In this document: positions 7,302 through 31,631 of the stretch, in pieces
Position numbering within the stretch: position 1 is the stretch's first letter
Layout of the letters: each line of letters opens with the position of its first letter
Assembly (NCBI GenBank): GCA_016790705.1
Contig: JAEUOT010000068.1
Location: 1 to 64,000, forward strand
DNA: 64,000 bases
Direction of reading: 5' to 3'
Source: Hydrogenophaga sp.
GTDB lineage: Bacteria > Pseudomonadota > Gammaproteobacteria > Burkholderiales > Burkholderiaceae_C
Notes under the pieces: model-generated
Told to the model about the DNA's origin: nothing
Database searches by the model: none
What the model saw: only the letters and a program-made list of their open reading frames with translations
Position numbers and translations under genes: made by a program

Positions 7302-8084
7302 TCAACTCAGACGTGAGCGCACCCAGTTCTGACTACGAAGCATGGCCGGCAGCAATTGCTCAATCATTTCACTGGCGGTCATGCGGTCTGCGCGGCTTGA
7401 AAGGCTCAGCGCACCCACCACAGAGCCCCCGAAGTTATAGAGTGGCACAGCAATAGACCGGACACCTACTTCAATCTCTTCGTTGCTCAACGCATAGCCG
7501 TTATCAGCGCAGGACACCAAGAGCTTACGAAGGCGCACAGGATCCGTGAGAGTGTGCGGCGTCAGCCGACACAGCGGCATGGCATTGAAAAGTGATTCAA
7601 AGTCGGCTCCCGACTTTGAACTCAATAGCACACGTCCAGTCGCTGAGCAGTGCAGCGGCAATCGTGAGCCAACGCCCAGCCCCACCGTCAAACTCTTGCG
7701 TGCGGTAGAGCGAGCCGCAACCATTGCTTCCATTCCATGGAGCACGACCACCGAAGCCGATTCTCGGGTCCGCTCGCTCAAGGCATCCAGCGTGGGCTGC
7801 AACAAGCGAGGCAATCGGGTCGAAGTCGAATACGCATAGGCCAAGCGCAGAACCCCGTGATCAAGCCAGAAGCGTTTGCCATCGGTCCGCGCGTAACCCC
7901 CTTTACACAGTGTCAGCAGACAACGTCGCGCGGCCGCCGGGCTGATACCGACCCGACGAGCGGCCTCAGACGAGGTCAGCCGCGCATGCTCATCGTCGAA
8001 AGCTTCGATCAGGCTCAGCCCCTTGGCGAGGCCAGCGATCAGGTCTTTCTCTTGGGTCGGCGGAGGGCAAGAAGTTACATCCAT
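7302..8084 (-). CDS. tphR: IclR-type regulator of terephthalate genes
   Basis: The 260-residue protein has an N-terminal winged helix (GLSLIEAFDDEHARLTSSEAARRVGISPAAARRCLLTL) and the C-terminal IclR effector domain (SASVVVLHGMEAMVAARS, LPLHCSATGRVLLSS, GYALSNEEIEVGVRSIAVPLYNF). It is divergent from tphC-A2A3BA1, exactly as tphR in Comamonas sp. E6, where it activates the operon with terephthalate as effector. The start at 8084 is preferred over the ATG at 8144, because the latter would put the palindrome at 8131-8143 inside the gene. No strong ribosome binding site is seen for either. Confidence 0.85.
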   Translation of the reverse strand: MDVTSCPPPTQEKDLIAGLAKGLSLIEAFDDEHARLTSSEAARRVGISPAAARRCLLTLCKGGYARTDGKRFWLDHGVLRLAYAYSTSTRLPRLLQPTLDALSERTRESASVVVLHGMEAMVAARSTARKSLTVGLGVGSRLPLHCSATGRVLLSSKSGADFESLFNAMPLCRLTPHTLTDPVRLRKLLVSCADNGYALSNEEIEVGVRSIAVPLYNFGGSVVGALSLSSRADRMTASEMIEQLLPAMLRSQNWVRSRLS

Positions 8085-8119
8085 GGGACTGGCATCACAT
8101 TGACAAGCGTCAAAGATAT

Positions 8120-8147
8120 TTGGCCGTTTATGCGCTATGCGCAATAT
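8120..8147 (+). promoter_or_regulatory. Putative TphR operator and tphC promoter
   Basis: In the tphR-tphC intergenic region a perfect palindrome TGCGCTATGCGCA lies at 8131-8143, with 5-base arms around TAT. It sits between a weak -35-like TTGGCC (8120-8125) and a -10-like CAATAT (8142-8147) with a 16-base spacer. The same arm-TAT-arm layout occurs at the iphR-iphA divergent promoter with a different half-site. Binding by TphR is inferred from position and symmetry. Confidence 0.5.
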
Positions 8148-8242
8148 TGACTATATCAACCTCGGGCGACAAACGCACACTACGCCCCGTTTTGACGACA
8201 TGTCTGGCCTGGCCGGACTTCCACCACCCGAGGAGAAAACTT

Positions 8243-9208
8243 TTGAAAAAACTCACGATCTGGATCTGCTCGCTAGCCGCCTCTCTCACCTGGACCTGCG
8301 CGCAAGCCAACGAATTCCCCAGCAAGTTGCTACGTCTAGTTGTTCCGTTCCCGGCAGGTGGCACGGCCGATGTTCTGCCGCGCATCCTGAGTGAAAAGCT
8401 GCGCGCCCGCTTCCCGGCTGGCGTGATCGTGGAGAACAAGCCCGGTGCAGGCGGCAACATCGGTGCCGAGTTGGTTGCCCGCTCTGAGCCTGATGGGCAC
8501 ACATTGCTGGTGTCCCCACCAGGTCCCATCGCCATCAATCGCAGCCTGTATGCAAAGCTGACCTACGATGCGAGCCAGTGGGTTCCGGTCACGGTGCTGG
8601 CGGCTGTACCTAACGTCTTGGCGGTCAGCAACCAGCTACCGGTCAAGAATGTGGCCGAGCTCATCGCCCACCTCAAGGCCCATCCCGGCACTGTTTCCTA
8701 TGCATCGCAGGGCAATGGCTCAACCTCGCACTTGACAGCCAACTTGTTCCAGTCCCTGACCGGAACACAGATGGTCCACGTTCCCTACAAAGGCACGGCA
8801 CCCGCACTGACCGATCTCGCTGGAGGCCAGGTGGATGTCTTCTTTGACAACCTCGGCTCCGCAAGCTCGCTGTACAAGGCCGGCAGGATTCGGATCCTGG
8901 CGGTCGCAGACAGCAAGCGCGCGTCCATCGTCAAAGAAGTGCCAACCTTTGCGGAAGTCGGCTTCAGCGGCATGCAAGCCGTGACCTGGTTCGCCGTCGT
9001 CGCACCACCCGGCACGCCGGCTGCCGTCGTCACGAAACTCAACAACGCACTGGTCGACATTCTCAAGCAGCCCGAAGTGCAACAGCGCTTTGCCGAGCAA
9101 GGCGCCGAAGCCGTGGGCAACACCTCAGAACAGATGGGCCAATTCGTTCGCGGAGAAGCCGCACGCTGGGCCAAGGTTATCAAGGATGCCAACGTCACGG
9201 TTGACTGA
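8243..9208 (+). CDS. tphC: Periplasmic terephthalate receptor (Bug/TctC family)
   Basis: The protein has 321 residues from the TTG at 8243; AGGAG sits seven bases upstream, and the start opens directly into a signal peptide ([21 protein letters not shown]). The mature part is a complete Bug solute-binding protein: [49 protein letters not shown], and [26 protein letters not shown]. In Comamonas sp. E6, TphC binds terephthalate and works with the TpiA-TpiB membrane pair, whose homologues lie at 18339-20357. Gene order (tphC before tphA2) is the same as in E6. Confidence 0.88.
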
Positions 9209-9246
9209 CCGGCGACACATCTACCCGCAAACTCAAGGAAGCAACC

Positions 9247-10485
9247 ATGAATCAGACTCACCCCATCACGTGGGTGCGGGGGCTACACACCCGCGTACCG
9301 TATGCCGTCTACCAGCGCCAAGACATCCTCGAACAGGAACAGAAACGTGTCTACGAAGGTCCTGCCTGGAACTACCTCTGCCTGGAAGCTGAGATTCCCG
9401 AGCCAGGCAGCTATCGCACGACATTTGTCGGCCAAACACCCGTTGTTGTGGCACGCGACACGGACGGCGACATATACGCCTTCGAGAACCGCTGCTCCCA
9501 CCGCGGTGCGTTGATCTGCCTGGAAAAATCCGGTACGGCCAAGGACTTCCAGTGCGTCTATCACGCTTGGACCTACAACCTGCAGGGCACACTCAAGGGT
9601 GTGGCCTTCGAAGCGGGTCTCGACGGTGCCGGCGGCATGCCGCCCTCCTTCTGCAAGGACAAGCACTCCCCGCGCAAACTGCGTATCGCTGTTTTCTGCG
9701 GCCTCGTGTTCGGCAGCTTCAGCGACGAGGTGGACAGCATTGAGGACTACCTAGGCCCAGAAATCTGCGCGCGCATTGAACGTGTGCTGAACAAGCCGGT
9801 GGAGGTTATCGGTCGCTTCACGCAGGCGCTGCCGAACAACTGGAAGCTCTACTTTGAGAACGTCAAGGACAGCTACCACGCCAGCCTGCTGCATCTTTTC
9901 TTCACCACCTTCCGCCTTAACCGCCTGTCGCAACGTGGCGCGGTGATCGTGAGCGAATCGGGTGGCCATCATGTGAGCTATTCGATGGTGGACGCGCCGC
10001 AGGCCGAAGCCGGCAAGCAATACCAGGAACAGGGTCTGCGCTCCGACCAAGAGGGTTACAAGCTCGCCGACCCGACCTTGCTGGCCGGTTTCAAGGAATT
10101 CGAGGATGGCATCACGCTTCAGATCCTCTCGGTTTTCCCAGGCCTTGTGCTGCAGCAGATCCAGAACTGCCTTGCCATCCGCCAGGTGCTCCCGCGCGGG
10201 GTGGAAGAAACCGACCTGAACTGGACCTACCTCGGTTATGCCGACGACACGCCCGCTCAGCGTGAAGTGCGCCTCAAGCAGGCCAATCTGATCGGGCCAG
10301 CCGGTTTTGTCTCAATGGAAGACGGTGCCGTCGGTGGCTTTGTTCAACGCGGCATAGCGACCGCTGGCGACGACGAAGCAGTTATCGAGATGGGCGGTGA
10401 CAGCACCTCTTCGAGCCCGTCGCGGGTGACCGAGGCCTCGGTGCGCGGCTTTTGGAAGCTGTATCGCCGCCTCATGGATATCTAG
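9247..10485 (+). CDS. tphA2: Terephthalate 1,2-dioxygenase large subunit
   Basis: The 412-residue Rieske oxygenase alpha subunit closely matches the TphA2 pattern ([79 protein letters not shown]). Rieske ligands are Cys83, His85, Cys103 and His106; the mononuclear iron site is Asp208, His211 and His216 within the N-x-x-D-x-x-H-x4-H box. With TphA3 and the TphA1 reductase it converts terephthalate to its 1,2-cis-dihydrodiol using O2 and NADPH. All catalytic residues are intact and the length equals the E6 enzyme to within a residue. Confidence 0.93.
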
Positions 10486-10496
10486 GAGCATCTGAC

Positions 10497-10973
10497 ATGA
10501 ACAACACTCTTTCACTGCGCGAGCGGATCGCGGCATTTCAGGCGGCCTACATCCGCTGCATCGACACCAACCAACTGGAAAGCTGGCCAGAGTTCTTTCT
10601 GCCTCAATGCCAATACACCGTGACTACGGCCGACAACCAGCGCGACGGCTTGGCCGCCGGCCTGATCTGGGCCAACAACCGCGCCATGTTGCAGGACAGA
10701 ATTTCAGCATTGCGCAACGCCAACGTCTACGAACGGCACAACTATCGCCACCTCGTCGGCCTACCCTTCATCACTGGCGAGCAGCCTGCAACAGCCAGTT
10801 GCGAAACGCCCTTCATGGTGGCCCGCATCATGCACGATGGGCACACCGACCTCTACTTCACCGGCGTCTATCACGACGAGTTCGACGCTTCGGGCGATGC
10901 CCTGCTCCTGCGCAGCCGTGTTGTGGTGTGCGACAGCAGCCGCGTCGATACCCTGCTGGCCGTCCCGCTGTGA
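10497..10973 (+). CDS. tphA3: Terephthalate 1,2-dioxygenase small subunit
   Basis: The 158-residue protein has the beta-subunit fold pattern of ring-hydroxylating dioxygenases (IAAFQAAYIRCIDTNQLESWPEFFLPQCQYTV, YERHNYRHLVGLP, LLLRSRVVVCDSSRVDTLLAVPL). It has no cofactor ligands and supports the hexameric oxygenase. The ATG at 10497 has AGGAG nine bases upstream; an earlier in-frame ATG lies inside tphA2. The stop overlaps the GTG of tphB, so the two are translationally coupled. The position between tphA2 and tphB is the E6 order. Confidence 0.92.
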   Translation: MNNTLSLRERIAAFQAAYIRCIDTNQLESWPEFFLPQCQYTVTTADNQRDGLAAGLIWANNRAMLQDRISALRNANVYERHNYRHLVGLPFITGEQPATASCETPFMVARIMHDGHTDLYFTGVYHDEFDASGDALLLRSRVVVCDSSRVDTLLAVPL

Positions 10974-11926: not shown

Positions 11927-11934
11927 ACCATTCA

Positions 11935-12942
11935 ATGACGAATCAGATCAAGATCGAAGGCAGCGAAGTCGCCTTCTCCTGCGAGCACGGCGAGACTGTT
12001 CTCGATGCCGCCACACGCAACGGTATTGAACTGCCTTATTCGTGTCGCAAGGGCGTATGCGGCAATTGCCGCGGTTTGGTGCTCGAAGGCCAACTGGTGC
12101 CAAGCACCGCCGGCGGAAGCGCCGAGGCCGGCATTCACGCGCCCAACGAGCATCTGTTCTGCCATGCACAGGCTGCCAGCGACTTGCTGATCCGGCCTCG
12201 TAGTTGGCAGCGCATCGACCCGGACGCGCGCAAGACCCTGCAAGCCAAGGTGTTCCGCGTGACGCAGGCGGCCAGCGACGTGACCGTGCTGCAACTGCGC
12301 TTTGCCGCCGGCATGCGTGCGAAGTTCCTGGCCGGTCAGTACCTGCAGGTAGTCCTGCCCGATGGCCAGCGCCGCTCTTACTCCATGGCCAATGCGCCGC
12401 ATGAGAGCGATGGCGTGCAGTTGCATATCCGTCATGTGCCCGGTGGCCACTTCAGCATGGACGTCTTGCCAGGCCTCAAACCTGGCGACTTCTTGCAACT
12501 CGAATTGCCACATGGCGATTTCTGGCTGCGCGAGGACAGCGAGCGCCCCTTGGTCATGGTGGCGGGCGGTACCGGATTTGCCCCGCTCAAATCGATCATC
12601 GACCACATGGTGCGCCGCAAGATCGGCCGCCCACTGACGCTGTACTGGGGGTCGCGCCTGCCCGAAGGCCTCTATGCGCAGGAGGTTATCGCCCGGTGGC
12701 AGCAGGGCCAGTTACCCTATCTGCGCTACGTGCCTGTCATCAGCGATGACGGCGATGACATATCGTGGCGAGGCCGTAGCGGCCTCGTTCACGAAGCCGT
12801 ACTCGCGGATCAGGCCGATCTGAGCGGTCATGACGTCTACGCCTGCGGTGCGCCGGCCATGGTGGCAGCACTACGGCGCGCCTGTATCGAGCAGCGAGGC
12901 TTGCCGGAAGAAAGATTTTTCAGTGACGCCTTCGTCAGCTAG
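11935..12942 (+). CDS. tphA1: Terephthalate dioxygenase reductase
   Basis: The 335-residue electron-transfer subunit has an N-terminal plant-type 2Fe-2S domain (LPYSCRKGVCGNCRGLVLEG, with a fourth cysteine in LFCHAQA), an FAD domain (RRSYSMANAPHE) and an NAD(P)H domain (MVAGGTGFAPLKSIIDHM, DVYACGAPAMVAALR). It passes electrons from NAD(P)H to TphA2A3. The domain order is ferredoxin first, as in TphA1 of E6 and opposite to IphD and OphA1 in this element, which carry the ferredoxin at the C-terminus. Three bases after its stop the relaxase-like scar begins. Confidence 0.9.
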   Translation: MTNQIKIEGSEVAFSCEHGETVLDAATRNGIELPYSCRKGVCGNCRGLVLEGQLVPSTAGGSAEAGIHAPNEHLFCHAQAASDLLIRPRSWQRIDPDARKTLQAKVFRVTQAASDVTVLQLRFAAGMRAKFLAGQYLQVVLPDGQRRSYSMANAPHESDGVQLHIRHVPGGHFSMDVLPGLKPGDFLQLELPHGDFWLREDSERPLVMVAGGTGFAPLKSIIDHMVRRKIGRPLTLYWGSRLPEGLYAQEVIARWQQGQLPYLRYVPVISDDGDDISWRGRSGLVHEAVLADQADLSGHDVYACGAPAMVAALRRACIEQRGLPEERFFSDAFVS

Positions 12943-12944: not shown

Positions 12945-13088
12945 ACTCCATGGAACTCGGTAGTCGAGCCTTGGCTAGGGAAGAAGCTCGCAGCATCGGC
13001 GCGCGGCAGTCAGGTCTCCCCGGAAATGGACCGTCAGTTGGGGACAGCGGTGTTGATCAAGGTTGATTGGCGGTTACGGCCCCATTGA
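12945..13088 (+). pseudogene. Diverged 3' end of a relaxase gene (scar)
   Basis: Read in one frame, this stretch encodes TPWNSVVEPWLGKKLAAS, then ARGSQVSPEMDRQLGTAV, which lines up with the last residues of the intact relaxase (VPWKGAIEPWLGHHLAAT, then VRGNQVSWELGRQLGTAV, ending at 7256). The nucleotide match is clear but not identical (for example TCGAGCCTTGGCTAGG and CAGTTGGGGAC are shared), and the reading frame runs on to a stop at 13086. It therefore comes from a related but different relaxase allele. It marks a junction between the tph and iph modules. Confidence 0.8.
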
Positions 13089-13155: not shown

Positions 13156-13935
13156 TCAATTGGTCACCGCACCAGCTTTTGCCGAGAGTTCGCGTGAAGC
13201 ATCAAGCAACAACGCCACGATCTGCCGCACGCGCACGTCATCCAAGCGCGCGCTCGGGCCATAGACTGCAAGGGACCCAATCACCTTGCCTGCGGCGGTA
13301 CTAAACGGCACTGCCATGGCCACTGCGCCCTTGATAAGCTCGTCTCGACTGATGGCGTAGCCAGCCTCTCGGATACGAACCAGTCCTTCAAGGTATGCCG
13401 GCTGCTGATCGGGCGGCACTTTACCGTCGAGGTAGCTGGCCGCGTCCTTTACAAAGGCTAGGATCGCTCGCCCGCTCGCACCCAGGATCACGCTCTCACT
13501 GTGTCCCACTCCCCGCTTGAAGCTTAGCGGCTGCGGACTGGGAATTTCCGCCACGCAGACCCGCTCCCGGCCATGGTGAACCAGCAGCGCAACGGTCTCG
13601 CCAGTCTGCTCCCACAGGCGGCGCATCATGGGCTGCGACAACTCTGCCAAATCTAAGCCTGAGGTCCAGACGTGGGCTAGGTGTGCCACCGAGGGTCCGA
13701 GTTGGAAGCGCTGCGGCTCGCCCGCAGCCACTATAAAGCCACGCAACTCCAGGGTCTTCAGCAGACGATAAAGGGTGGGTCGGCTCAAGTCGACACGCCG
13801 CAAAAGTTCGCTTGCGCTCAGTTGCCGGTCGCCCGCCCGAAAGGCCAGCAGGATGTCAAGCGCGCGATCTACCGAGCGAACCCCCTCCCCCGATTTCTCT
13901 GCTGGAGCCCAACTGGCGGTGCTTTCGTTACTCAT
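13156..13935 (-). CDS. iphR: IclR-type regulator of isophthalate genes
   Basis: The 259-residue protein starts at the ATG at 13935 (an in-frame ATG at 14028 would run through the promoter). The N-terminal winged helix is VRSVDRALDILLAFRAGDRQLSASELLRRVDLSRPTLYRLLKTL; the effector domain follows (SGLDLAELSQPMMRRLWEQTGETVALLVHHG, ILGASGRAILAF, GYAISRDELIKGAVAMAVPF). It faces iphA across a region with a perfect palindrome. In Comamonas sp. E6 iphR represses the iph genes and is the last gene of the cluster; here it is the first and divergent. The assignment rests mainly on that neighbourhood. Confidence 0.78.
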   Translation of the reverse strand: MSNESTASWAPAEKSGEGVRSVDRALDILLAFRAGDRQLSASELLRRVDLSRPTLYRLLKTLELRGFIVAAGEPQRFQLGPSVAHLAHVWTSGLDLAELSQPMMRRLWEQTGETVALLVHHGRERVCVAEIPSPQPLSFKRGVGHSESVILGASGRAILAFVKDAASYLDGKVPPDQQPAYLEGLVRIREAGYAISRDELIKGAVAMAVPFSTAAGKVIGSLAVYGPSARLDDVRVRQIVALLLDASRELSAKAGAVTN

Positions 13936-13993
13936 GATCGTCCCGACTACTTTGTGCTGGTAGGTGGTGATTGTACGAAATACGTCCATCAGG

Positions 13994-14042
13994 CGGACAT
14001 ATTGTCCGTTTTCTTTGACATGAATCAAATGATCCAGATAAT
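13994..14042 (+). promoter_or_regulatory. iphA promoter with IclR-type operator
   Basis: A perfect palindrome CGGACATATTGTCCG (13994-14008) lies just upstream of a strong sigma70-type promoter: TTGACA at 14015-14020, a 16-base spacer and GATAAT at 14037-14042. A Shine-Dalgarno AGGAGA follows at 14071, before the iphA start at 14085. Related half-sites GTCCAT (about 13984) and ATGGACAT (14041-14048) flank it symmetrically. The near-consensus promoter fits control by repression, as described for IphR. Confidence 0.65.
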
Positions 14043-14084: not shown

Positions 14085-15359
14085 ATGAACAAGGAAATGT
14101 CTGAAACGCTTACCCGCGTCGGTCCCGGCACGCGCATGGGCAACCTGCTGCGCCGCTACTGGGTGCCAGCGCTGATGTCGAACGAGATCGCCGAGTCGGA
14201 TGGCCCGCAGGTACGCGTGCAACTGCTGGGCGAAAAGCTGCTCGCGTTCCGCAACTCCGACGGCAAGGCCTGCTTGATCAGCGAGTTCTGCTCCCACCGC
14301 GGTGTGTCGCTGTACTTCGGCCGCAACGAGGAAAACGGCATTCGCTGCGCCTATCACGGCGTCAAGTTCGATGGCATGGGCCAGTGCGTGGACGTGCCGT
14401 CATCGCCCCAGGCTTGCGCCCGGATGCACATCAAGGGCTACCCCTGCATTGAGCGCGGCGGCATCGTTTGGACCTACATGGGTCCGGCCGACCAACAGCC
14501 TGCAGCGCCTGAACTTGAGTGGTGCACGTTGCCACCCGAGCATGTGTTTGTGTCCAAACGGCTGCAGTATTCGAACTATCTCCAAGCTATGGAAGGCGGC
14601 ATCGACACCGCGCACGTGTCATATGTACACAGCTTCGAGGTGGACGGCGACCCCATGCACCAGGGCGTCAAGGCGCTGGACTACATCAAGGCCGATGGCA
14701 ATGTGAGCTTCGAGATCGAAAAGCAGCCCTTCGGACTGAGCCTGTTCGGCCGTCGGCTGGGCGAGCCCGACTCCTACTACTGGCGCATCACGCAGTGGTT
14801 GTTCCCCTGGTTCACACTGATCGCGCCATTTGGCAACCACGCGCTGGGAGGCCACGTTTGGGTGCCGATCGACGACCACAACTGCTGGGCCTGGAGCATC
14901 AACTGGCAGCCTGATCGACCGCTCACGGCCGAGGAGCGCACCGCGATGGAGGCCGGCAAAGGCATCCACGTCGAATACGAGGCACCGGGCAGCTTTATCC
15001 CGAAATTCAGCCGCGACAACGACTACGGCATGGATCGCCAGGCCCAAAAGGACAAACGTTCCTATAGCGGCATCTTTGGCTTCGCGGCCCAGGACTACTC
15101 GTTACAGGAAAGCATGGGCCCTATCCAGGACCATGAAGCGGAAATGCTGTTGCCAACCGATAAGGCCATCGTGATGGCGCGGCGCATGCTGCACGAAGCC
15201 GCATTGGGCCTAGAGCAAGGCGACACACCGCCGGCGCTGAACGCCAGCGAGCAACACGTGCGTCCTGCCGGGGTGCTCCTGCCCCGAGACCAGGACCCCG
15301 TCGAATGGGCACGCCAGAACCTAGCCGATGCCACTAGCAAGCCGGTCTTCAGCCTTTGA
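14085..15359 (+). CDS. iphA: Isophthalate dioxygenase, oxygenase component
   Basis: The 424-residue protein is a phthalate-dioxygenase-type (homomultimeric, no beta subunit) Rieske oxygenase. Rieske ligands are Cys69, His71, Cys88 and His91 (FCSHRGVSLYFGRNEENGIRCAYHGVKFD). The iron site lies in the box EGGIDTAHVSYVH, with Asp174, His177 and His182. It is followed by iphC, iphB and iphD in the same order as in Comamonas sp. E6, where the enzyme converts isophthalate to the cis-dihydrodiol. It differs clearly from the ortho-phthalate oxygenase at 30312, so the substrate assignment rests on operon content; a role with another phthalate-like substrate cannot be excluded. Confidence 0.78.
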   Translation: MNKEMSETLTRVGPGTRMGNLLRRYWVPALMSNEIAESDGPQVRVQLLGEKLLAFRNSDGKACLISEFCSHRGVSLYFGRNEENGIRCAYHGVKFDGMGQCVDVPSSPQACARMHIKGYPCIERGGIVWTYMGPADQQPAAPELEWCTLPPEHVFVSKRLQYSNYLQAMEGGIDTAHVSYVHSFEVDGDPMHQGVKALDYIKADGNVSFEIEKQPFGLSLFGRRLGEPDSYYWRITQWLFPWFTLIAPFGNHALGGHVWVPIDDHNCWAWSINWQPDRPLTAEERTAMEAGKGIHVEYEAPGSFIPKFSRDNDYGMDRQAQKDKRSYSGIFGFAAQDYSLQESMGPIQDHEAEMLLPTDKAIVMARRMLHEAALGLEQGDTPPALNASEQHVRPAGVLLPRDQDPVEWARQNLADATSKPVFSL

Positions 15360-18338: not shown

Positions 18339-18827
18339 GTGGCGTTCGCCAGCCAAAAAGATTTTGTGTCCGGACTCATGTTCATGGCCGTGGGCGGCTC
18401 GTTCGCCTGGGGCGCCGTGGACTATGAAATCGGCGATGCCGCCCGCATGGGTCCTGGCTACTTTCCCTTCATGCTGGGCCTTATTCTGGTCTTGCTCGGG
18501 GTTCTGGTCACCTTCAACGCCTTCAAGTCCGGCCCGCCCGGGGGTGACAAGATCGGCGCGCTCGCGTGGCGTCCGCTGGTGTTCATCCTCGGAGCCAACC
18601 TGCTGTTCGGTGCACTGCTGGTGGGTATTCCCGCCTTCGGCCTGCCGGCCTTCGGCCTGATCGTGGCGATCTTCGGCCTGGTCATCATGGCCGGCTACGC
18701 CCGCGAAGGCGCGAAGTTCAAGGAGTCGCTGATCCTGGCCGCCATCCTGGCCGCGGGCAGCTACCTCGCTTTCGTGAAACTGCTGAACCTGCAGTTTCCG
18801 GTCCTGCCCTGGTTCCTCGCGAACTGA
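18339..18827 (+). CDS. tpiB: Tripartite tricarboxylate transporter small membrane subunit (TctB)
   Basis: The 162-residue protein begins with GTG at 18339 (GGAGA at 18328-18332, six bases away). It has the TctB pattern: an N-terminal segment KDFVSGLMFMAVGGSFAWGAVDYEIGDAARMGPGYFPFMLGLILVLLG, then three more hydrophobic helices. It forms the membrane channel with TctA downstream. In Comamonas sp. E6 the pair TpiB-TpiA takes up terephthalate with TphC and also supports uptake of the other phthalate isomers. The gene symbol follows this precedent; general citrate-like TctB genes look similar, so the name rests on context. Confidence 0.8.
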   Translation: MAFASQKDFVSGLMFMAVGGSFAWGAVDYEIGDAARMGPGYFPFMLGLILVLLGVLVTFNAFKSGPPGGDKIGALAWRPLVFILGANLLFGALLVGIPAFGLPAFGLIVAIFGLVIMAGYAREGAKFKESLILAAILAAGSYLAFVKLLNLQFPVLPWFLAN

Positions 18828-18845
18828 ACACGAGGAGACAAGCAC

Positions 18846-24592: not shown

Positions 24593-24655
24593 TGAGCTCT
24601 CCTGTCGCCTGGTTTCTTCTTCAGCCTTACGTGGTACTGCCGCACACATTGCGGC

Positions 24656-25408
24656 TTATTTCATCAGAAGCAGCAAAGACAGCGCCACCAACAAACTCAG
24701 CAATAGATGCCGAAATACTTTGTCGCTCAGTCGATGACGGATCGTCCTACCGATTTGCAAACCGACAAACATGGGGATCAACGCAAGACAAGACAGTCCG
24801 ACCTCCGAAAAACCGAACCGCCCATACAACAGCATGGCGCCATACATTGGTACTGCACCAATCAGGTAAATGATGCTGATGGAACCAACAAACTCTTCCC
24901 GACGAAGCCTGAGAGCCAGGAGATAAGTGATCAGTATCGGACCTGTGAGGGAGGAAACGCCGGCCATCGCGCCGGCAATCACACCTACCAACGGCCCCAT
25001 CCAGCGCTCCTTCTGACGATCAATGTTGAATGATGTCCCGAGCAGCATCATTCCCACCGCCGCCATCACGACCAGCGCCAACAACATGTTGAAACCCTGC
25101 ACAGAGAGGTTCCTGGTGAAGTGGATCGCAGCAATCGTCGCGACAAACTGACCAACCAGCAACCCACCGAAGCGCTGAAATCCCTCACGCAGTTTCTGTC
25201 CCTCTATGGACTGCCATAGGTTGGAGAGCAGAACTGGCATGACGAGCAGCCCCATCGCTTTGGGCGCTGGCAGAAGAAGCGACAGCAAGGGAACCACGAC
25301 GAGCGGCAAACCCACCCCAAGGGTTCCCTTGACCACGCCCCCGAGCACCACGGCGCCAAAGCAAGCGATCCAAAGTGCCATAGAAGGCATGGCATCTTGA
25401 AACATCAC
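24656..25408 (-). CDS. TauE/SafE-family membrane permease
   Basis: The 250-residue protein has eight or so hydrophobic helices and the family repeat pattern: GAVVLGGVVKGTLGVGLPLVVVPLLSLLLPAPKAMGLLVMPVLLSNLWQS in the first half and GPLVGVIAGAMAGVSSLTGPILITYLLALRL in the second. TauE/SafE proteins export sulphite, sulphoacetate or other small organic anions. The gene overlaps the Bug receptor by four bases and is likely cotranscribed with it. Its job in phthalate metabolism is unknown; movement of phthalate or an intermediate is possible, since no OphD-type permease is present. Confidence 0.8.
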   Translation of the reverse strand: MMFQDAMPSMALWIACFGAVVLGGVVKGTLGVGLPLVVVPLLSLLLPAPKAMGLLVMPVLLSNLWQSIEGQKLREGFQRFGGLLVGQFVATIAAIHFTRNLSVQGFNMLLALVVMAAVGMMLLGTSFNIDRQKERWMGPLVGVIAGAMAGVSSLTGPILITYLLALRLRREEFVGSISIIYLIGAVPMYGAMLLYGRFGFSEVGLSCLALIPMFVGLQIGRTIRHRLSDKVFRHLLLSLLVALSLLLLMK

Positions 25409-26376
25409 TCGGCTTTGAGTTCCGCGTGTTTGCCCGCCTTTGCCATGGCTTGGTTCTCCAGCTCAATGACTTTGCGGTAGGCGTCGCCATTGGCACCGAC
25501 GGACTCGATACCGGCGGTCTGGAACTTCTCGACGACGTCCGGCAATTTCACGATCTGAGCGATTTCATCGGAGATCCTCTTGGAAATCTCTGACGGCGTG
25601 CCGGTGCGGGCAAGCACCCCTACGCTGACCGAAAAGTCAAAGCCTGGGATCGTTTCATTGATCGATGGCACATCGGGCACGGACGCCGAGCGCTTGGCCG
25701 CGTTGCTGGCCAGCAAAACAACTTGACCGCTTTTCACAAAACCCTGCATGGACGGCAACGCGGCAAACAAGACGTCCACCTGTCCACCGACCAATGCCGG
25801 CACAGACTGACTCGAACCGCGGAAGGGGACGTGAACCAGAGACAAACCGAGATCCGCCTTCATAGCTTCCATCGTGAGGTGGTGCGTGCTTCCGATCCCC
25901 GACGACCCATAGGTGAAGGCACCAGGCTCCTTTTTAGCGCGCACGACGAACTCCTGGAAAGTCTTGACGCCGGTCTTGGGGTGCGCCACCAGGAACAAGG
26001 GCGAGCGTGCAATCAGCGATACGGCCTGAAGGTCCTGTCCGACCGCGTACTTGGCGGCCTTGTTGATCTGCGGTGTGATCGAAAGCATGGAGCCATCGGA
26101 AACGATGAAGCTGTAACCATCGGCAGGCAACGCGTTCAGGGTCTGAACCGAGACGATACCGTTGCCCCCCGGCTTGTTCTCGACCACGAAGCCCTGCTTC
26201 ATGCGCTCGGAAAGCTTTTGGGCAATGACACGCGCCACCGTGTCTGGCAGGCCGCCCGGTGCATAAGGCACGATGAACTTGACTGGACGGTTGGGGTAAT
26301 CGCCAGCCTGTGCCAGCACGGCACCAGATGCAAGGAGCGCGCTCATGGCAAGTGCTGCAAGGATTCGTCGTTTCAT
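25405..26376 (-). CDS. Bug/TctC-family receptor of the phthalate cluster
   Basis: The 323-residue protein begins at ATG 26376 (GGAGAC upstream) with a signal peptide KRRILAALAMSALLASGAVLAQA. The mature part is a standard Bug receptor (VKFIVPYAPGGLPDTVARVIAQKL, GFVVENKPGGNGIVSVQTL, VHVPFRGSSQSVPALVGGQVDVLFA). It is the third such receptor in the cargo and is divergent from ophA1. By analogy with TphC and IphC it probably binds ortho-phthalate and uses the TpiAB membrane subunits at 18339-20357; this is inference. It overlaps the TauE-like gene downstream. Confidence 0.8.
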   Translation of the reverse strand: MKRRILAALAMSALLASGAVLAQAGDYPNRPVKFIVPYAPGGLPDTVARVIAQKLSERMKQGFVVENKPGGNGIVSVQTLNALPADGYSFIVSDGSMLSITPQINKAAKYAVGQDLQAVSLIARSPLFLVAHPKTGVKTFQEFVVRAKKEPGAFTYGSSGIGSTHHLTMEAMKADLGLSLVHVPFRGSSQSVPALVGGQVDVLFAALPSMQGFVKSGQVVLLASNAAKRSASVPDVPSINETIPGFDFSVSVGVLARTGTPSEISKRISDEIAQIVKLPDVVEKFQTAGIESVGANGDAYRKVIELENQAMAKAGKHAELKAE

Positions 26377-26422
26377 GGTTTGTCTCCGTAAGTGAGGTTG
26401 ATGAGATGAAGAAAGCAGAACA

Positions 26423-26521
26423 GCATCTGTGCACCCCTTTTTAGGGGAGATGCGCGACTGCTTGTTTTTTCTTAGGAATCTAAGATAATTGATTTTTCCC
26501 ACTTGCTTGATCTTTGTCAAG
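26423..26521. promoter_or_regulatory. Divergent oph control region with MarR-like operator
   Basis: The palindrome CTTAGGAATCTAAG lies at 26471-26484, and a closely related CTTCGATATCTAAG occurs upstream of ophA2 at 31685. Both fit a MarR-type operator, and a marR gene lies in the cluster. On one side CCCCT and AGGGG form a hairpin at 26434-26447, extended by the complementary arms GCATCT and AGATGC, which would fold in the leader of the receptor transcript. On the other side CTTGA and TCAAG (26506-26521) form another small repeat before ophA1. Confidence 0.55.
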
Positions 26522-26563
26522 AGTAGGTACCCATCAACTTCGCTGCGTAGAAACACTTACACC

Positions 26564-27526
26564 ATGACTGCAAACGAGACAATGCACCCCCTCCTCATCA
26601 CTCGAAAGGAGGTCATCGCCAAGGACGTCTTTCTCTTCGAGTTGAAGTCTCCGGACGCGTCACCGCTGCCCAGCTTCACGGCCGGGGCTCACATCGCGGT
26701 CCAGGTGCCCAATGGCTCTATGCGCCACTACTCGCTGTGCAGCGACCCTGGCCGAACAGACCTCTATCAACTCGCGGTCAAACGCGAAGATGACGGCAGG
26801 GGGGGATCCAAGAGCTTGATCGACGGGGCGAACGTCGGCGACACGCTTTTGACCGGCACCCCTAGCAATCTGTTCGAGCTCAGCGAAAAGGCCAAGAGCT
26901 TCATCCTCGTGGCCGGTGGCATCGGCATCACACCCATGCGAGCGATGATTCACACCCTCGAAGCCGAAGGCATAAGGAGCTTCAAGCTCTACTACCTTGC
27001 ACGCACGCCAGAATCGGCCGCCTTCCTGGACGAACTGAGTGCCCCCGAAATGAAGGGGAAGGTCGCCATCCACCACACTTACGGCGACCCGTCGAAAACC
27101 TTCGATCTCTGGTCTGTCTTCGAGAAACCCGTCGCTGGCACGCATGTCTATTGCTGCGGCTCCAAGCGACTGATGGATGAAGTCAAGGATATGACGGGTC
27201 ACTGGGCCAGCAGTGCCGTGCACTTCGAGAGCTTCGGAGCTGATACGAAACCGCACCCCGACGACAAACCCTTCGAAGTCGAATTGGCCAGAACGGGCAT
27301 GAAGGTCGTCGTGCCAGCCAACCGAAGCATCCTGGATACCCTGCGCGAGCATTCCATTCGAGTGCCCAGTTCTTGTGAGAGCGGAACGTGCGGCTCTTGC
27401 AAGGTGCGGCTGCTCAAAGGCGAAGCTGACCATCGGGACCTGGCCCTGCTCCCTGAGGAGCAGGAGGACCACATCATGGTGTGCGTCTCCAGAGCGAAGT
27501 CGAACACCTTGGTGCTTGACCTGTGA
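26564..27526 (+). CDS. ophA1: Phthalate 4,5-dioxygenase reductase
   Basis: The 320-residue protein starts at the ATG at 26564, chosen because the longer frame runs into the operator region. The domains follow phthalate dioxygenase reductase: FMN domain (GSMRHYSLCSDPGRTDLYQLAVKREDDGRGGSKSL), NADH domain (FILVAGGIGITPMRAMIHTL, HVYCCGSKRLMDEV) and C-terminal plant-type ferredoxin (VPSSCESGTCGSCKVRLLKGEADHRD, IMVCVSRAKSNTLVLDL). It supplies electrons to OphA2. The GTG of ophB overlaps its stop codon, indicating translational coupling. Confidence 0.88.
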   Translation: MTANETMHPLLITRKEVIAKDVFLFELKSPDASPLPSFTAGAHIAVQVPNGSMRHYSLCSDPGRTDLYQLAVKREDDGRGGSKSLIDGANVGDTLLTGTPSNLFELSEKAKSFILVAGGIGITPMRAMIHTLEAEGIRSFKLYYLARTPESAAFLDELSAPEMKGKVAIHHTYGDPSKTFDLWSVFEKPVAGTHVYCCGSKRLMDEVKDMTGHWASSAVHFESFGADTKPHPDDKPFEVELARTGMKVVVPANRSILDTLREHSIRVPSSCESGTCGSCKVRLLKGEADHRDLALLPEEQEDHIMVCVSRAKSNTLVLDL

Positions 27527-28740
27527 GCCCCTCAGTGAATCCCCACAAGCAGCCCATCAGGCTCGGTGTCCTGGGTCTTGGCCGTGCCTTCACCCTGATG
27601 ATCCCGACGCTCAGCAAGGATCCGCGCGTCGCGCTGGCCGCCTGCTTCGATCCGAATGCTCGCGCCACCGCAGCCTTTGCCAAAGCGTTCGGCGGGGTGG
27701 CGCACACATCGGCCGAAGCGCTTTGCGCCGATCCGAACGTTGAATGGATCTATGTCGCCACACCGCATCAGTTGCATGAGGAGCATGTGCGACTCGCGGC
27801 GAGCCAAGGCAAGCACGTGCTGGTCGAGAAGCCCATGGCTTTGTCGCTTGCAGCATGCGCCCGCATGCAGGCGGCTTGCGAACAGGCGGGCACGCAAATG
27901 ATTGTTGGCCACAGCCACAGCTTCAACGCGCCCGTATCGCATGCCAAGGCACTCATCGAGTCAGGTCAATGGGGCCGTGTCTGCATGATTCACGCCATGA
28001 ACTTCACGGATTTTCTCTACCGTCCCAGGCGTCCGGAAGAATTGGATACAGCGAAGGGCGGTGGCGTCGTCTTCAGTCAGGCCGCGCACCAAGTCGATAT
28101 TGTCCGGCTGCTGGCGGGCGGTGACGTCAGTTCCGTTTATGCAAGAACCGGATCATGGGACCCGACACGGCCCACCGAAGGTGCGTACACCGCGATACTG
28201 AACTTCCGCTCAGGCGCGTTTGCCAACGTGACCTACAACGGCTATGGCTTCTTTGACAGTGACCCGTGGATGGCGGGCATCGGGGAAATGGGCTGGCCCA
28301 AAGACGTCAACACCCATCGGCTAACTCGGGAAAAGCACCTGGCAACGAAGGACGAGGCGGCCGAGGCCCGCCGGAAGGCCAGTCGGAACTTTGGTGGCCA
28401 GGACTATGCGCCGGACGTTCGGCCATCGCCCGCCGCCTTTCAACACTTCGGCCCGGTCATCGTCAGCTGCGAGCATGCCGATCTGCGTTTGACTCCTTAC
28501 GGCGTGGAGATTCACGACACCCATGGCGTGTGCCTGGAGGCCCCGCAGCGCGGACCGGTGCCTCGCTTTGAGGTTGTGGACGAGTTGTGGTCGGTGGCCC
28601 GAGATGGGAGCCCTCCAGTCCACTCAGGGGCGTGGTCCGCAGCAACGATGGAGGTCTGTCTGGCGATTCTCGAATCGGGCAAGAAAGGAGAAGCTATCAT
28701 TCTGGAACATCAAGTCCCAGTCCCGCCGCTTCGGCTTTGA
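27523..28740 (+). CDS. ophB: Phthalate 4,5-cis-dihydrodiol dehydrogenase
   Basis: The 405-residue protein is a Gfo/Idh/MocA oxidoreductase: nucleotide-binding GVLGLGRAFTLMIPTL, the EKPMALSLAACARM motif, and GGGVVFSQAAHQVDIVRLLAGG with the catalytic His. This is the family of the phthalate dihydrodiol dehydrogenases Pht4/OphB. It oxidises cis-4,5-dihydro-4,5-dihydroxyphthalate to 4,5-dihydroxyphthalate with NAD+. The start is GTG, overlapping the ophA1 stop. Between the reductase and the MarR gene it is part of the plus-strand half of the cluster, while oxygenase and decarboxylase are on the other strand. Confidence 0.87.
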   Translation: MSPSVNPHKQPIRLGVLGLGRAFTLMIPTLSKDPRVALAACFDPNARATAAFAKAFGGVAHTSAEALCADPNVEWIYVATPHQLHEEHVRLAASQGKHVLVEKPMALSLAACARMQAACEQAGTQMIVGHSHSFNAPVSHAKALIESGQWGRVCMIHAMNFTDFLYRPRRPEELDTAKGGGVVFSQAAHQVDIVRLLAGGDVSSVYARTGSWDPTRPTEGAYTAILNFRSGAFANVTYNGYGFFDSDPWMAGIGEMGWPKDVNTHRLTREKHLATKDEAAEARRKASRNFGGQDYAPDVRPSPAAFQHFGPVIVSCEHADLRLTPYGVEIHDTHGVCLEAPQRGPVPRFEVVDELWSVARDGSPPVHSGAWSAATMEVCLAILESGKKGEAIILEHQVPVPPLRL

Positions 28741-28748
28741 CGCCTCCA

Positions 28749-29261
28749 ATGAGCGAAAAATCCATAGACACCCGAAACCTGCTTAGCCACTGGCGAGAAT
28801 CCGTCCCCAATGATCGCCTTGCCCATTTGGTGCGAGACGTCGCACGTGCGCAGATGCGAGCGCTCCAGCATCGATTGACCCCGTTTGGCGTCTCATTCGG
28901 TCACTGGTCGTTTCTGAGGATTCTGTGGAGCCGTGACGGACTGACCCAAAAGGAACTGAGTGATCTGGCTGGCGTGATGGAACCCACGACGTTCACTGCG
29001 GTCAAGGCCATGGAGAAGATGGGCTTCATCGAGCGCAGGCATTTGCCTGGCAACAAGAAGAACATGCATGTGTACCTGACGGAGTCGGGCCGCTCATTGG
29101 AAAGGGTACTTGTTCCTTTGGCCGAGGAAGTCAACCACATCAGCGCGAAGGGACTACCGGATCGCACGATTTCAGTTGTTAGAAATGCACTCGTCCAGAT
29201 GATCGAGAATCTTGCCCAAGAAGAAGCCCGCGTCGATGCGAGCATCAACGCGGGCTGTTAG
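28749..29261 (+). CDS. MarR-family regulator of the phthalate cluster
   Basis: The 170-residue protein starts at the ATG at 28749, eight bases after ophB. The winged helix is LTPFGVSFGHWSFLRILWSRDGLTQKELSDLAGVMEPTTFTAVKAMEKMGFIERRHLPGNKKNMHVYLTESG, framed by the dimerisation helices. MarR proteins repress from palindromes and release on binding aromatic ligands. It is the only intact regulator in the oph cluster (the LysR gene is truncated), and two related palindromes occur at the two oph promoters. The effector, phthalate or a downstream acid, is not known. Confidence 0.83.
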   Translation: MSEKSIDTRNLLSHWRESVPNDRLAHLVRDVARAQMRALQHRLTPFGVSFGHWSFLRILWSRDGLTQKELSDLAGVMEPTTFTAVKAMEKMGFIERRHLPGNKKNMHVYLTESGRSLERVLVPLAEEVNHISAKGLPDRTISVVRNALVQMIENLAQEEARVDASINAGC

Positions 29262-29302: not shown

Positions 29303-29312
29303 GAAAGCAGCC

Positions 29313-30305
29313 TCAAATACTGTAGCTTTCGTAGGTCGACGGGTCGAAGAGCTCGTCTAACCCCACCCTCCGGCATGACAGCCCCTGCGCATGATGGTGA
29401 TGCAGGAACGCCTCGAGAGTCTTTCGATTCGGCCCTACGCCATAGGACCAGAAGTCCTGTCCCAGCGTTTCACGCGCTGCCTTGAGCTGTTCCTCCACAA
29501 ACGGCAGGGTCACCTTGGTGGCCGAGGTGTCCGCCAGCAGTTCCAGGGCTTTCGCCTTGGATTCGCTGAATGCCTTGAACACAGCGCCCGGCAGCCAGCG
29601 GTTCTGTTCTGCCAACTCCTTGCGGATGCCCACCACGTGCATGATCGGAAAGATGCCCGTTCGCTTGTAGTAGTCTTTGGCCACCGCCGTCGGGTCGTCG
29701 AAAAGCCAGGCCACATCCGGGTTGGTCAGCGCGGCACCACTGGGTGGCCTTGGCGCAATGAATGCGTCAATTTCGCCCGTGTTCAGCATGTCCGAGATGG
29801 TCCGCATCTCCGGGGCCGCTTCAACTTTCACACCTGCAGGCAACTCCAGCTTGATCTTCTCCGGGCGCCCGGGCGTGTCAATCCCGCCCCTGACCCAGGT
29901 CACATCCTCCGGTCGTATCCCGTAGTCATCCTGCAGGATCGAGCGCGCCCACACGATCGCCGTCAGCTGGTACTCCGGCACCCCGATTCGGCAACCCTTG
30001 AGGTCCTCCGGCTTGCGGATGCGGTCCTTCCGCACGTAGATGGACGTGTGGCGAAAGGCACGTGACAGGAACACCGGAACCCCGATGTAAGGGCTCTCGC
30101 CCTTGGCGTGCTTCACCAGATAGCTGGAGAAAGACAGCTCGGTGATATCGAAGTCTCGGCTCCGCATGGCCCGAAAGAACATCTCCTCCGGGTTCAGCAG
30201 CATGTACACCGGGTCGCATCCATCAATTTGAACACGCCCGTCGTACAAGGCCCGATTGCGGTCGTAGTCACCCATGGCGACTGATAGTCGTAGCTTGGTC
30301 ATCAA
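29313..30305 (-). CDS. ophC: 4,5-dihydroxyphthalate decarboxylase
   Basis: The 330-residue protein matches the Pht5/OphC family: LRLSVAMGDYDRNRALYDGRVQIDGCDPVYMLLNPEEMFFRAMRSRDFDITELSFSSYL near the N-terminus, then GVPEYQLTAIVWARSIL and DAFIAPRPPSGA. The fold is that of periplasmic-type binding proteins but without a signal peptide, so it is cytoplasmic. It removes one carboxyl group from 4,5-dihydroxyphthalate to give protocatechuate. The start at 30305 (MMTKLRL; 30302 is equally possible) lies six bases after ophA2, so the two are one operon. Confidence 0.88.
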   Translation of the reverse strand: MMTKLRLSVAMGDYDRNRALYDGRVQIDGCDPVYMLLNPEEMFFRAMRSRDFDITELSFSSYLVKHAKGESPYIGVPVFLSRAFRHTSIYVRKDRIRKPEDLKGCRIGVPEYQLTAIVWARSILQDDYGIRPEDVTWVRGGIDTPGRPEKIKLELPAGVKVEAAPEMRTISDMLNTGEIDAFIAPRPPSGAALTNPDVAWLFDDPTAVAKDYYKRTGIFPIMHVVGIRKELAEQNRWLPGAVFKAFSESKAKALELLADTSATKVTLPFVEEQLKAARETLGQDFWSYGVGPNRKTLEAFLHHHHAQGLSCRRVGLDELFDPSTYESYSI

Positions 30306-30311
30306 GTCAGC

Positions 30312-31631
30312 TCAGGCAGTGACAACATAAGAACGGTCCATCTCTGGATTATCCTGACCCTCAAGCCAGACATAGCTCGTCTCGTAAGCGCGCCAGTCCA
30401 CGGTCTTTGGAATGACTCCCTGGAACGAGCACACTTCATTCGGAATGCGGTTCTCACCACCACCGATGACTTCGCCACTCTTCTGGAACGCCCGAACCGC
30501 CTCGACCATCTGCTTGCGGAACTCGACGATGGCCATGTCGCTGGCTCCAAGGCGGTCGTGACTTCTGTCGGCGATCTTGCCCATGGTGATCCACATGGCC
30601 ATGTCCTGATTCGGAATGCCGGAAATGCCGGTGAAGTTGCCACTCTTCATCGCTTGGCGGTCCTGCCAGTACCTGTTCTCGTAGTTGCGCAGCGGACGGT
30701 ACTGCTCATCCAGATCGACGCCGACCGTCTGGCCCAGGAATTTGCGCCAAGTGGCCGTCTCAGGGGTCTGCGAAGGATGGCCCCAGCCGATGAAGTAGAA
30801 GCAGGTGTTGGTATCGTCCACTGGCACATTCACGTTCGCCACGTTGTACAGGTTGTTCGGTGGAATCAGCACCGTCCAAGGCGCAACGAACACCGTCGTG
30901 CGCACGTAGTCGTGCGTCTGGGCATTGAAGATGGGGCGCCGCACTGCGGCATACCGGAAGCCGAACTTCGCGCGCTGCACCTGCATCCGCGGCGCCTTGT
31001 CGGTGGACGGACGCAGCCAGTTCTTGTCGGTGGCTTTCGCACCATCGACACGTGCAGGAACCATGTCCGAACTGTGCAGGCTCGAGCTGTGCGCCGAATC
31101 GATCGCACCTTCCAGAATCTGTGCCCAGTTCACGGGGATGATCACCTTGGCGACGCTCACCCGTGTTTCCGCAGTGGGCGCCCAGCGGGGTGGCTCAAAC
31201 TCCGGCATGGTTTCGGCCGCACCCATGTAGGCCCAGACAAAGCCGCCCCATTCCTTGGTGGGGTATGCCTTGTGTTTGACTTTTTCCAGCATGCCACTGG
31301 CTTCCGGCTCGGAGGACATCTCGGTGACATTGCCCGCCACGTCCATCTTCCAGCCGTGATATAGGCAGCGCAAGCCACCCTCCTCGTTCCGGCCGAACAC
31401 CAAGGATGCCCTGCGATGGGGACAGTACTCGTCCATCACGCCGACTTGCCCGTCGGTGTTTCGGAACACCACGAGGTCTTCGCCGAGGATCCGTGCTTTG
31501 ACAGGGGTTCCGTCAGGCTCCGACACCTCTTCGATCAGACAGATCGGAACCCAGTGTCGACGCATCAGATGCCCCATCGGGGCACCGTTTTCAACGCGGC
31601 ACAGCAGATCGTTTTCTTCATGCGTAATCAT
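30312..31631 (-). CDS. ophA2: Phthalate 4,5-dioxygenase, oxygenase component
   Basis: The 439-residue protein starts at the ATG at 31631, with GAGAG upstream. Rieske ligands are Cys70, His72, Cys89 and His92 (EYCPHRRASLVFGRNEEGGLRCLYHGWKMD). The iron site is in LEGAIDSAHSSSLH, with Asp178, His181 and His186. The length and the C-terminal half (FTGISGIPNQDMAMWITMGKIADRSHDRLGASDMAIVEFRKQM) are those of Pht3/OphA2. It converts ortho-phthalate to cis-4,5-dihydro-4,5-dihydroxyphthalate. A MarR-like palindrome lies 54 bases before the start. Confidence 0.9.
   Translation of the reverse strand: MITHEENDLLCRVENGAPMGHLMRRHWVPICLIEEVSEPDGTPVKARILGEDLVVFRNTDGQVGVMDEYCPHRRASLVFGRNEEGGLRCLYHGWKMDVAGNVTEMSSEPEASGMLEKVKHKAYPTKEWGGFVWAYMGAAETMPEFEPPRWAPTAETRVSVAKVIIPVNWAQILEGAIDSAHSSSLHSSDMVPARVDGAKATDKNWLRPSTDKAPRMQVQRAKFGFRYAAVRRPIFNAQTHDYVRTTVFVAPWTVLIPPNNLYNVANVNVPVDDTNTCFYFIGWGHPSQTPETATWRKFLGQTVGVDLDEQYRPLRNYENRYWQDRQAMKSGNFTGISGIPNQDMAMWITMGKIADRSHDRLGASDMAIVEFRKQMVEAVRAFQKSGEVIGGGENRIPNEVCSFQGVIPKTVDWRAYETSYVWLEGQDNPEMDRSYVVTA

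What the first reader, a model, noticed from the sequence alone, without database searches (positions are those of the whole stretch)
7302..31631. One conjugative element carries pathways for all three phthalate isomers
Complete sets for terephthalate (tphC-A2-A3-B-A1), isophthalate (iphA-C-B-D) and ortho-phthalate (ophA1, ophB, ophC, ophA2) lie together between the relaxase and traR of a Tn4371-type ICE. Catalytic residues are intact in every enzyme examined. Each pathway is known separately from Comamonas and Burkholderia; their combination on one self-transmissible element, with regulators and uptake genes, would be a ready-made trait for spreading breakdown of plasticiser and polyester monomers.
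Basis: partly seen in the sequence, partly recalled or inferred. Interest (0 to 1): 0.85.

Follow-up and report, generated by a model that had tools for sequence, protein, structure and literature searches.

The report
Mobile element degrading three phthalate isomers
A DNA element inserted beside a core metabolic gene in a Hydrogenophaga-like bacterium carries intact gene sets for the first steps of breaking down all three phthalate isomers (building blocks of plastics and plasticisers), each known before but apparently not together on one such element.

Summary
Window 7302-31670 encodes complete, stop-free upper pathways (acid to protocatechuate) for terephthalate, isophthalate and ortho-phthalate, with three TctC-type binding proteins and one TctB-TctA permease. 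The main enzymes match characterised relatives in the PDB, and published isomer-specificity residues are kept in IphA (10 of 10) and OphA2. The cargo lies inside a tra/trb backbone. I located both element ends, outside the cargo: attR in the 3' end of icd (window about 47746-47761) and attL on another contig of the same genome (C26:20037). The ICE is about 84 kb here; a contiguous 94-kb version sits at the same site in a second MAG (Hydrogenophaga MAG_7). Corrections: 18 of 19 backbone proteins tested match a Tn4371-family ICE in order, but the integrase is unrelated (27%), lies at the opposite end and targets icd, so the published integrase criterion for that family fails. Neither protocatechuate ring-cleavage family tested lies on the element; the host has a 4,5-dioxygenase elsewhere. 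tph looks like a later arrival. Two-isomer combinations are known. All three on one bounded ICE were seen in two genomes, and no match turned up in the paper and plasmid searches made. Transfer and growth are untested.

The parts
15..350 (+). DUF2958 backbone protein (start of contig C10; the left arm of the ICE continues on contig C26)
   Evidence: Pfam 142.9 bits; 66% to pPNAP01
608..1465 (+). RovC/DUF2285-type regulator, backbone
   Evidence: Pfam; 55% to pPNAP01
1789..2739 (+). replication initiator RepA
   Evidence: Pfam RPA 294 bits; 78%
2924..3622 (+). ParA
   Evidence: Pfam; 88%
3888..5029 (+). DUF2840 protein and S26 peptidase (TraF-like)
   Evidence: Pfam; 60% and 62%
5175..7256 (+). 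relaxase (RlxS-like)
   Evidence: NF041267 652 bits, below its 850 cut-off; 68% to the pPNAP01 relaxase
7302..8144 (-). IclR-type regulator of tph (PcaR/PcaU/PobR-like)
   Evidence: TIGR02431 270 bits, just under cut-off
8120..9208 (+). tphC, TctC-type terephthalate-binding protein
   Evidence: Pfam TctC; PDB 8hka
9247..10485 (+). tphA2, terephthalate dioxygenase alpha subunit
   Evidence: PDB 7vju E 6e-204
10452..10973 (+). tphA3, dioxygenase beta subunit (start uncertain)
   Evidence: AndAd-like 137 bits
10970..11926 (+). tphB, PdxA-like dihydrodiol dehydrogenase
   Evidence: PDB 8zj3 and 4aty
11935..12942 (+). tphA1, reductase; its stop codon lies just outside the shared tph unit 7299-12939
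12948..13065 (+). 74% copy of the end of the relaxase gene and its downstream DNA (7149-7266); scar of recombination right of tph
13156..14028 (-). IclR-type regulator beside iph
14085..15359 (+). iphA, isophthalate dioxygenase
   Evidence: PDB 9ina E 1e-275; 10 of 10 specificity residues
15328..16380 (+). iphC, TctC-type binding protein
   Evidence: Pfam TctC
16387..17166 (+). iphB, SDR dihydrodiol dehydrogenase
17170..18144 (+). iphD, reductase
18339..20357 (+). TctB (18339-18827) and TctA (18846-20357), the only TctA/TctB permease pair found in the window
   Evidence: Pfam TctB 65 bits, TctA 521 bits
21583..22760 (.). IS5-like element with 19-bp perfect terminal inverted repeats, at the place of an 11-kb block kept in G040 and G043
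23267..24115 (-). nadC (quinolinate phosphoribosyltransferase) of the oph cluster
   Evidence: TIGR00078 310 bits over cut-off 198
25405..26556 (-). third TctC-type binding protein, beside ophA1
   Evidence: Pfam 207 bits
26489..27526 (+). ophA1, phthalate dioxygenase reductase
   Evidence: PDB 2pia E 7e-119
27523..28740 (+). ophB, phthalate dihydrodiol dehydrogenase
   Evidence: PDB 7wzd E 3e-127
28587..29261 (+). MarR-like regulator (ORF; true start downstream)
   Evidence: MarR/SlyA chains in PDB, best E 2e-12, over residues 69-215
29313..30305 (-). ophC, 4,5-dihydroxyphthalate decarboxylase
   Evidence: PDB 9jp7 E 4e-169
30312..31631 (-). ophA2, phthalate 4,5-dioxygenase
   Evidence: PDB 7fjl E 3e-247
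32285..33217 (+). LysR regulator of the backbone (traR position)
   Evidence: 64% to pPNAP01; kept in G004
33729..45680 (+). traG, copG, trbB, C, E, J, L, F, G, I (trbD not tested)
46351..47562 (-). tyrosine integrase, unrelated to int of Tn4371, at the trb end; small unassigned ORF 45987-46361 beside it (AlpA-like only by eye)
   Evidence: Pfam Phage_integrase 81 bits; 27% to the pPNAP01 integrase
47746..47761 (.). attR, inside the last codons of icd (47744-48997, -)

Best explanation
The window holds the right 48 kb of an ICE of about 84 kb. A tyrosine integrase at the trb end inserts it at the 3' end of icd (isocitrate dehydrogenase) and the element resupplies the last codons. The transfer part is a Tn4371/IncP-like relaxase plus TraG and Trb secretion system. 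The cargo turns each phthalate isomer into protocatechuate by its own route: TphA1A2A3 then TphB; IphAD then IphB; OphA1A2, OphB, OphC. Three periplasmic TctC-type proteins capture the acids and (inferred) share the single TctB-TctA pair. IclR and MarR regulators would switch each block (inferred). The oph-linked NadC probably offsets interference of phthalate, a quinolinate analogue, with NAD synthesis (inferred). Protocatechuate is then opened by the host's chromosomal 4,5-dioxygenase, so a recipient gains the trait only if it already has a protocatechuate pathway. Shown by sequence: genes, intact motifs, ends, second copy. Inferred: expression, activity, excision, transfer.
For: Enzymes. 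Ends: attR/attL match; the left end starts at the same base in G000:C26:20037, G040:C38:231592 and G004:C324:21051; the DNA left of attL on C26 is what follows icd directly in 10 of 14 relatives examined, so C26 and C10 are two halves of one insertion. Second copy: G040 carries window 1-21591 at 96% and 21582-49010 at 94% on one 344-kb contig, with 23 of 23 proteins compared full-length or nearly so, 95-100% identical and stop-free. Third insertion at icd with the same integrase (96%), no phthalate match in the parts compared: G004. Host ring cleavage: LigA 239.5 bits (cut-off 108.6) and LigB on C8.
Against: No transfer, excision or growth data. The G000 element is split over two contigs with an unseen gap (about 0.8 kb judging from G040), and G000 and G040 are metagenome-assembled. 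The first att match taken alone (16 bases, one mismatch) could arise by chance, by my own arithmetic about 0.25 expected in that scan; the case rests on the left ends and flanks. oriT and trbD were not sought. The relaxase scores below the RlxS cut-off. The host MAG is 84.75% complete.
Confidence: 0.82

Rival explanations
1. An immobile, decaying genomic island: the same genes, but no longer able to excise or transfer.
For: Low transfer is reported for a related element (5.8e-10 per donor, PMC9960961, section 18 read). The attL and attR copies differ by a few bases. An IS element and the loss of an 11-kb block show ongoing rearrangement.
Against: Integrase, relaxase and TraG are intact in both G000 and G040; the same integrase occurs at icd in three genomes with different cargo states; backbone DNA is 94-96% identical in G040, while the host chromosome beside it is 77%, which fits recent transfer.
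Confidence: 0.15
2. A patchwork assembly artefact of a metagenome bin: the three pathways come from different molecules.
For: The window genome is a draft in 71 contigs; several relatives break at IS elements.
Against: The same order runs without break on one 344-kb contig of an independent record, G040, and iph with oph on one contig of NFH-34, an isolate-style record (G042).
Confidence: 0.03
3. The enzymes act on other aromatic acids (hydroxylated or pyridine dicarboxylates) rather than on all three phthalates.
For: Rieske oxygenases can be promiscuous; the KF1 phthalate dioxygenase also accepts terephthalate weakly (PMC13040137, section 12 read).
Against: Near full-length matches to the characterised isomer-specific enzymes, with specificity residues kept: IphA 10 of 10; OphA2 R207, R244 and S182 equivalents. 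For TphA2 an Arg aligns with Arg 309 of chain 7vju; the E6 numbering was not checked.
Confidence: 0.05

Closest known systems
Tn4371 family ICEs (ICETn4371_6065 on pPNAP01 used as yardstick)
   Same: 18 of 19 backbone proteins tested, same order, 55-88% identity; cargo also between relaxase and LysR/traG
   Different: pPNAP01's integrase lies at the other end of its element and is 27% identical to the window's; here the site is icd; cargo is three phthalate pathways, not biphenyl genes
tph/iph/tpiBA system of Comamonas (E6, KF-1)
   Same: same enzymes; A-C-B-D order of the iph genes as first named for Comamonas (recalled for E6; seen in C. endophytica); iph next to tph in KF-1 (PMC3746432, passages)
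   Different: in E6 tpiBA lies elsewhere (PMC13040137, section 14 read); here a TctB-TctA pair, a third binding protein and the oph genes sit with them on an ICE
oph/pht clusters with nadC (Burkholderia DBO1, Sphingobium SHJ, Acidovorax pACP3.2)
   Same: oph genes with nadC and a MarR regulator (PMC6051330, passages)
   Different: joined to tph and iph on a bounded ICE
Rhodococcus RHA1 pRHL1/pRHL2 pad-pat-tpa islands
   Same: phthalate plus terephthalate genes on mobile replicons (PMC13343209, passages)
   Different: Gram-positive 3,4-dioxygenase route (PMC13040137, section 12), linear plasmids; no isophthalate set named
Tn4371-like elements with an unrelated integrase (R. solanacearum MolK2, second element of Diaphorobacter TPSY)
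   Same: backbone with a different integrase region (PMC2789088, passages)
   Different: not compared here by sequence

Membership tests
Tn4371 family of ICEs | similar maintenance and transfer genes in conserved order | tested here: met
   18 of 19 proteins matched in order on pPNAP01
Tn4371 family of ICEs | integrase closely related to intTn4371, over 70% protein homology (PMC2789088) | tested here: not met
   27% identity to the pPNAP01 site-specific integrase; that integrase found no match above this in G040, C26 or the window
Tn4371 family of ICEs | 8-bp att TTTTTCAT (or GATTTTAAG in relatives) | tested here: not met
   neither motif at window 45000-49000; attR is the icd 3' end
Integrative and conjugative element | integrase plus defined attL/attR flanking the element | tested here: met
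Integrative and conjugative element | relaxase, coupling protein and mating-pair formation genes | tested here: met
   (trbD, oriT not sought)
Integrative and conjugative element | excision and conjugal transfer | not testable with these tools
   needs attP PCR and mating
Terephthalate pathway (tph) | two-subunit dioxygenase, reductase, dihydrodiol dehydrogenase | tested here: met
Isophthalate pathway (iph) | single-subunit dioxygenase with published specificity residues, reductase, dehydrogenase | tested here: met
Ortho-phthalate 4,5-dioxygenase pathway (oph) | oxygenase, reductase, dihydrodiol dehydrogenase, decarboxylase | tested here: met
Complete catabolism on the element alone | protocatechuate ring-cleavage genes on the ICE | tested here: not met
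   LigA matches only on C8; no PcaH in the genome; 2,3-cleavage not tested

The most novel reading that the evidence does not exclude
A self-contained phthalate uptake-and-breakdown unit that travels: one TctB-TctA permease on the ICE serves three binding proteins, one per isomer (including ortho-phthalate, for which no TTT uptake is listed in the 2026 review section I read), and the unit has been moved between integration modules and extended by acquiring a 5.6-kb tph unit, on an ICE whose left arm also carries anti-plasmid/anti-phage systems (Wadjet, Gabija, AbiE) that may favour its upkeep.
Probability: 0.4. Interest if true: 0.65.

Novelty: new variant of a known kind. Interest (0 to 1): 0.52.

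Why it matters
Laboratories have built a conjugative plasmid to spread terephthalate breakdown alone (PMC11725763, abstract seen). This element appears to be a natural construct doing more: all three isomers, with uptake, in one inheritable step. It gives a defined, testable case of how man-made chemicals select for stacking of pathways on one mobile element, with relatives that keep intermediate states (iph+oph without tph in G042 and G043), and a permease-sharing hypothesis that gene removals can test.

Tried and rejected
Searching the G040 stretch 255-267 kb for attL found nothing; the end lay further left. Genes downstream of icd in relatives did not match the G040 left side, but matched C26 of the window genome; the G040 left flank itself gave only a 21-bp match, so its chromosomal neighbour differs. 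G015, tried as an empty site, showed no icd beside the flank. A tRNA-Leu target in G042 was suspected by eye beside a GATTTTAAG 549 bp past the trb end, but ARAGORN found no tRNA there; left open. Rhodococcus N1 plasmid, with tph and a distant iphA-like gene, was rejected as a three-isomer plasmid: no oph genes in the 45 kb shown and a different dehydrogenase. Caballeronia insecticola's 1.28-Mb replicon has ophA2 at 73.5%, tphA2 at 65.6% and an iphA-like gene at only 51.8%, hundreds of kb apart: a scattered partial precedent. The NadC idea (protection from phthalate) is not new: PMC6051330 (passages) cites Chang and Zylstra 1999 for it; the 1999 paper is not held. A NadC tree of 10 rows was mostly unresolved; 5 of 6 oph-linked copies grouped at 87/87. 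tph as a transposon was considered: no terminal inverted repeats were found. The tph unit ends at windows 7299 and 12939 were read from the G041 match.

Paper searches for absence of earlier reports: (open-licence PMC only); most subscription journals are not covered.
Full report
1. Genes. Window 7302-31670 holds three complete upper pathways. Terephthalate: IclR regulator, tphC, tphA2, A3, B, A1. Isophthalate: IclR regulator, iphA, C, B, D. Ortho-phthalate: ophA1, ophB, a MarR-like regulator, ophC, ophA2, plus nadC and a third TctC protein. Family scans are; PDB matches. No stop interrupts any of the 22 proteins translated, and motifs tested are intact. The three oxygenases are distinct. IphA aligns over its full length with chain 9ina; the 2025 paper on isophthalate dioxygenase of C. 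testosteroni KF1 (PMC12445078, passages and section 6 read) names residues that set isomer choice, and 10 of 10 checked are the same here. In OphA2 the equivalents of R207 and R244 and S182 are kept. In TphA2 an Arg aligns with Arg 309 of chain 7vju.

2. Uptake. The window has one TctB-TctA pair (18339-20357) and three TctC-type binding proteins, one per block. In Comamonas E6 the membrane pair lies away from the tph and iph genes (PMC13040137, section 14 read). Among 80 iphA loci with up to 10 kb on each side, TctA at 60% or more occurs in 4: L012, L013, L016, which carry ICE genes, and L029. That the pair serves all three acids is inference.

3. Backbone. 18 of 19 proteins tested match, in the same order and at 55-88% identity, the Tn4371-family element on plasmid pPNAP01, which PMC2789088 lists as ICETn4371_6065 (passages). 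The one without a match is the small ORF 45987-46361.

4. Ends. The integrase (46351-47562, minus strand) lies beyond trbI, next to the 3' end of icd (47744-48997). It is 27% identical to the pPNAP01 integrase. A scan of the G040 contig for a repeat of the icd 3' end gave one 16-base match with one mismatch, at 231594. The window genome has, on contig C26, DNA that starts matching the G040 element at exactly that point (C26:20037, 99.4% over 21.4 kb) and runs to the contig end at 55163; G004 shows the same left end at C324:21051. The DNA just left of this point on C26 is what directly follows icd in 10 of 14 relatives whose icd loci were fetched (no match in L153, L155, L159, L164). C26 and the window contig are therefore the two flanks of one insertion: 35.1 kb + a gap of about 0.8 kb (judged from G040) + 47.8 kb, about 84 kb. 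In G040 the element is contiguous from 231594 to 325979, 94.4 kb.

5. Relatives. G040 (record title: MAG Hydrogenophaga sp. MAG_7) has the whole unit: 23 of 23 proteins compared are stop-free, 95-100% identical. It and G043 share an 11.1-kb block (97% alike) at the place where the window has only an IS5-like element with 19-bp inverted repeats. The block in G040 includes homogentisate 1,2-dioxygenase and fumarylacetoacetase, both over cut-off. G042 (NFH-34), G043 and G041 (H. pseudoflava CZa25-1) have iph, oph and trb genes of the same lineage without tph at that place; G042 and G043 have no TphA2 relative at E 1e-130. The integrase of the window has no match in the stretches fetched from G041, G042, G043 (the G043 contig ends before that point), so iph-oph cargo probably rides on more than one integration module.

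6. How tph came. The tph unit (7299-12939) occurs in G041 at 97.6% on contig C17, near ICE left-arm genes but elsewhere in the layout; both C17 and C4 of G041 end in IS3-like sequence by eye, so they may adjoin, which is not proven. In the window, tph is followed by a 118-bp, 74% copy of the end of the relaxase region (12948-13065 against 7149-7266). This looks like recombination with another element of the same backbone. Direction (gain rather than repeated loss) is inference.

7. How rare. Of 113 iphA relatives found, 80 loci were kept; within 10 kb of iphA, tphA2 (60% or more) lies in 3 of 80 and oph genes in 3 of 80, never both; the range and contig ends limit this. All three together: G040 only, plus the window genome; G041 is possible. 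In 72,556 plasmid records no record has all three at 60% or more: iphA reaches that in one record, absent from the other two lists at that level (lists show 60 of 82, 45 of 45 and 60 of 75 records, and all rows of 60% or more are shown). Paper searches gave no report of such an ICE; the library holds open-licence papers only.

8. Host completion. LigA matches lie only on contig C8 of the window genome; LigA and LigB there score over cut-off, and no PcaH was found (genome 84.75% complete). The element thus supplies the upper pathways only.

9. Verdict. The element is a Tn4371-like conjugative backbone with a different integration module, so it works like, but by the published integrase rule is not a member of, the Tn4371 family. 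The parts are known; the combination and the bounded, repeated element are new as far as searched. Function and transfer remain to be tested.

Noticed in passing
G000:C26:22156-30596 (L197:2156-10596), left arm of the same ICE: Four genes matching JetA, JetB, JetC, JetD of a type II Wadjet system (679, 471, 1481, 438 bits).
   Followed up: partly
G000:C26:43674-46070 (L198:3674-6070): GajA of Gabija (906 bits), in a 4.9-kb stretch of C26 that did not align with G040; the neighbouring ORF was not scanned.
   Followed up: partly
G000:C26:20283-21239 (L197:283-1239): AbiEii-type toxin gene near attL (Pfam 150 bits).
   Followed up: no
G040:C38:288798-299810 and G043:C52:22306-33319: Shared 11-kb extra cargo: homogentisate dioxygenase, fumarylacetoacetase, Rieske oxygenase, ferredoxin reductase, citrate-synthase-like protein with HTH, TctC; absent from the window.
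   Followed up: partly
window 23267-24115: The genome holds four nadC-like genes, three over the NadC cut-off; the oph-linked one is 61% and 53% identical to two others.
   Followed up: partly
window 20420-20971 and 24137-24649: Two hemerythrin-domain proteins within the cargo; one also lies beside oph genes on Acidovorax pACP3.2. Role unknown.
   Followed up: no
G041:C17:8817-11837 (L206): Caspase-domain plus helicase protein just left of the tph unit in H. pseudoflava CZa25-1.
   Followed up: no
window 31649-32029: DUF2798 protein overlapping the start of the longer ophA2 ORF.
   Followed up: no
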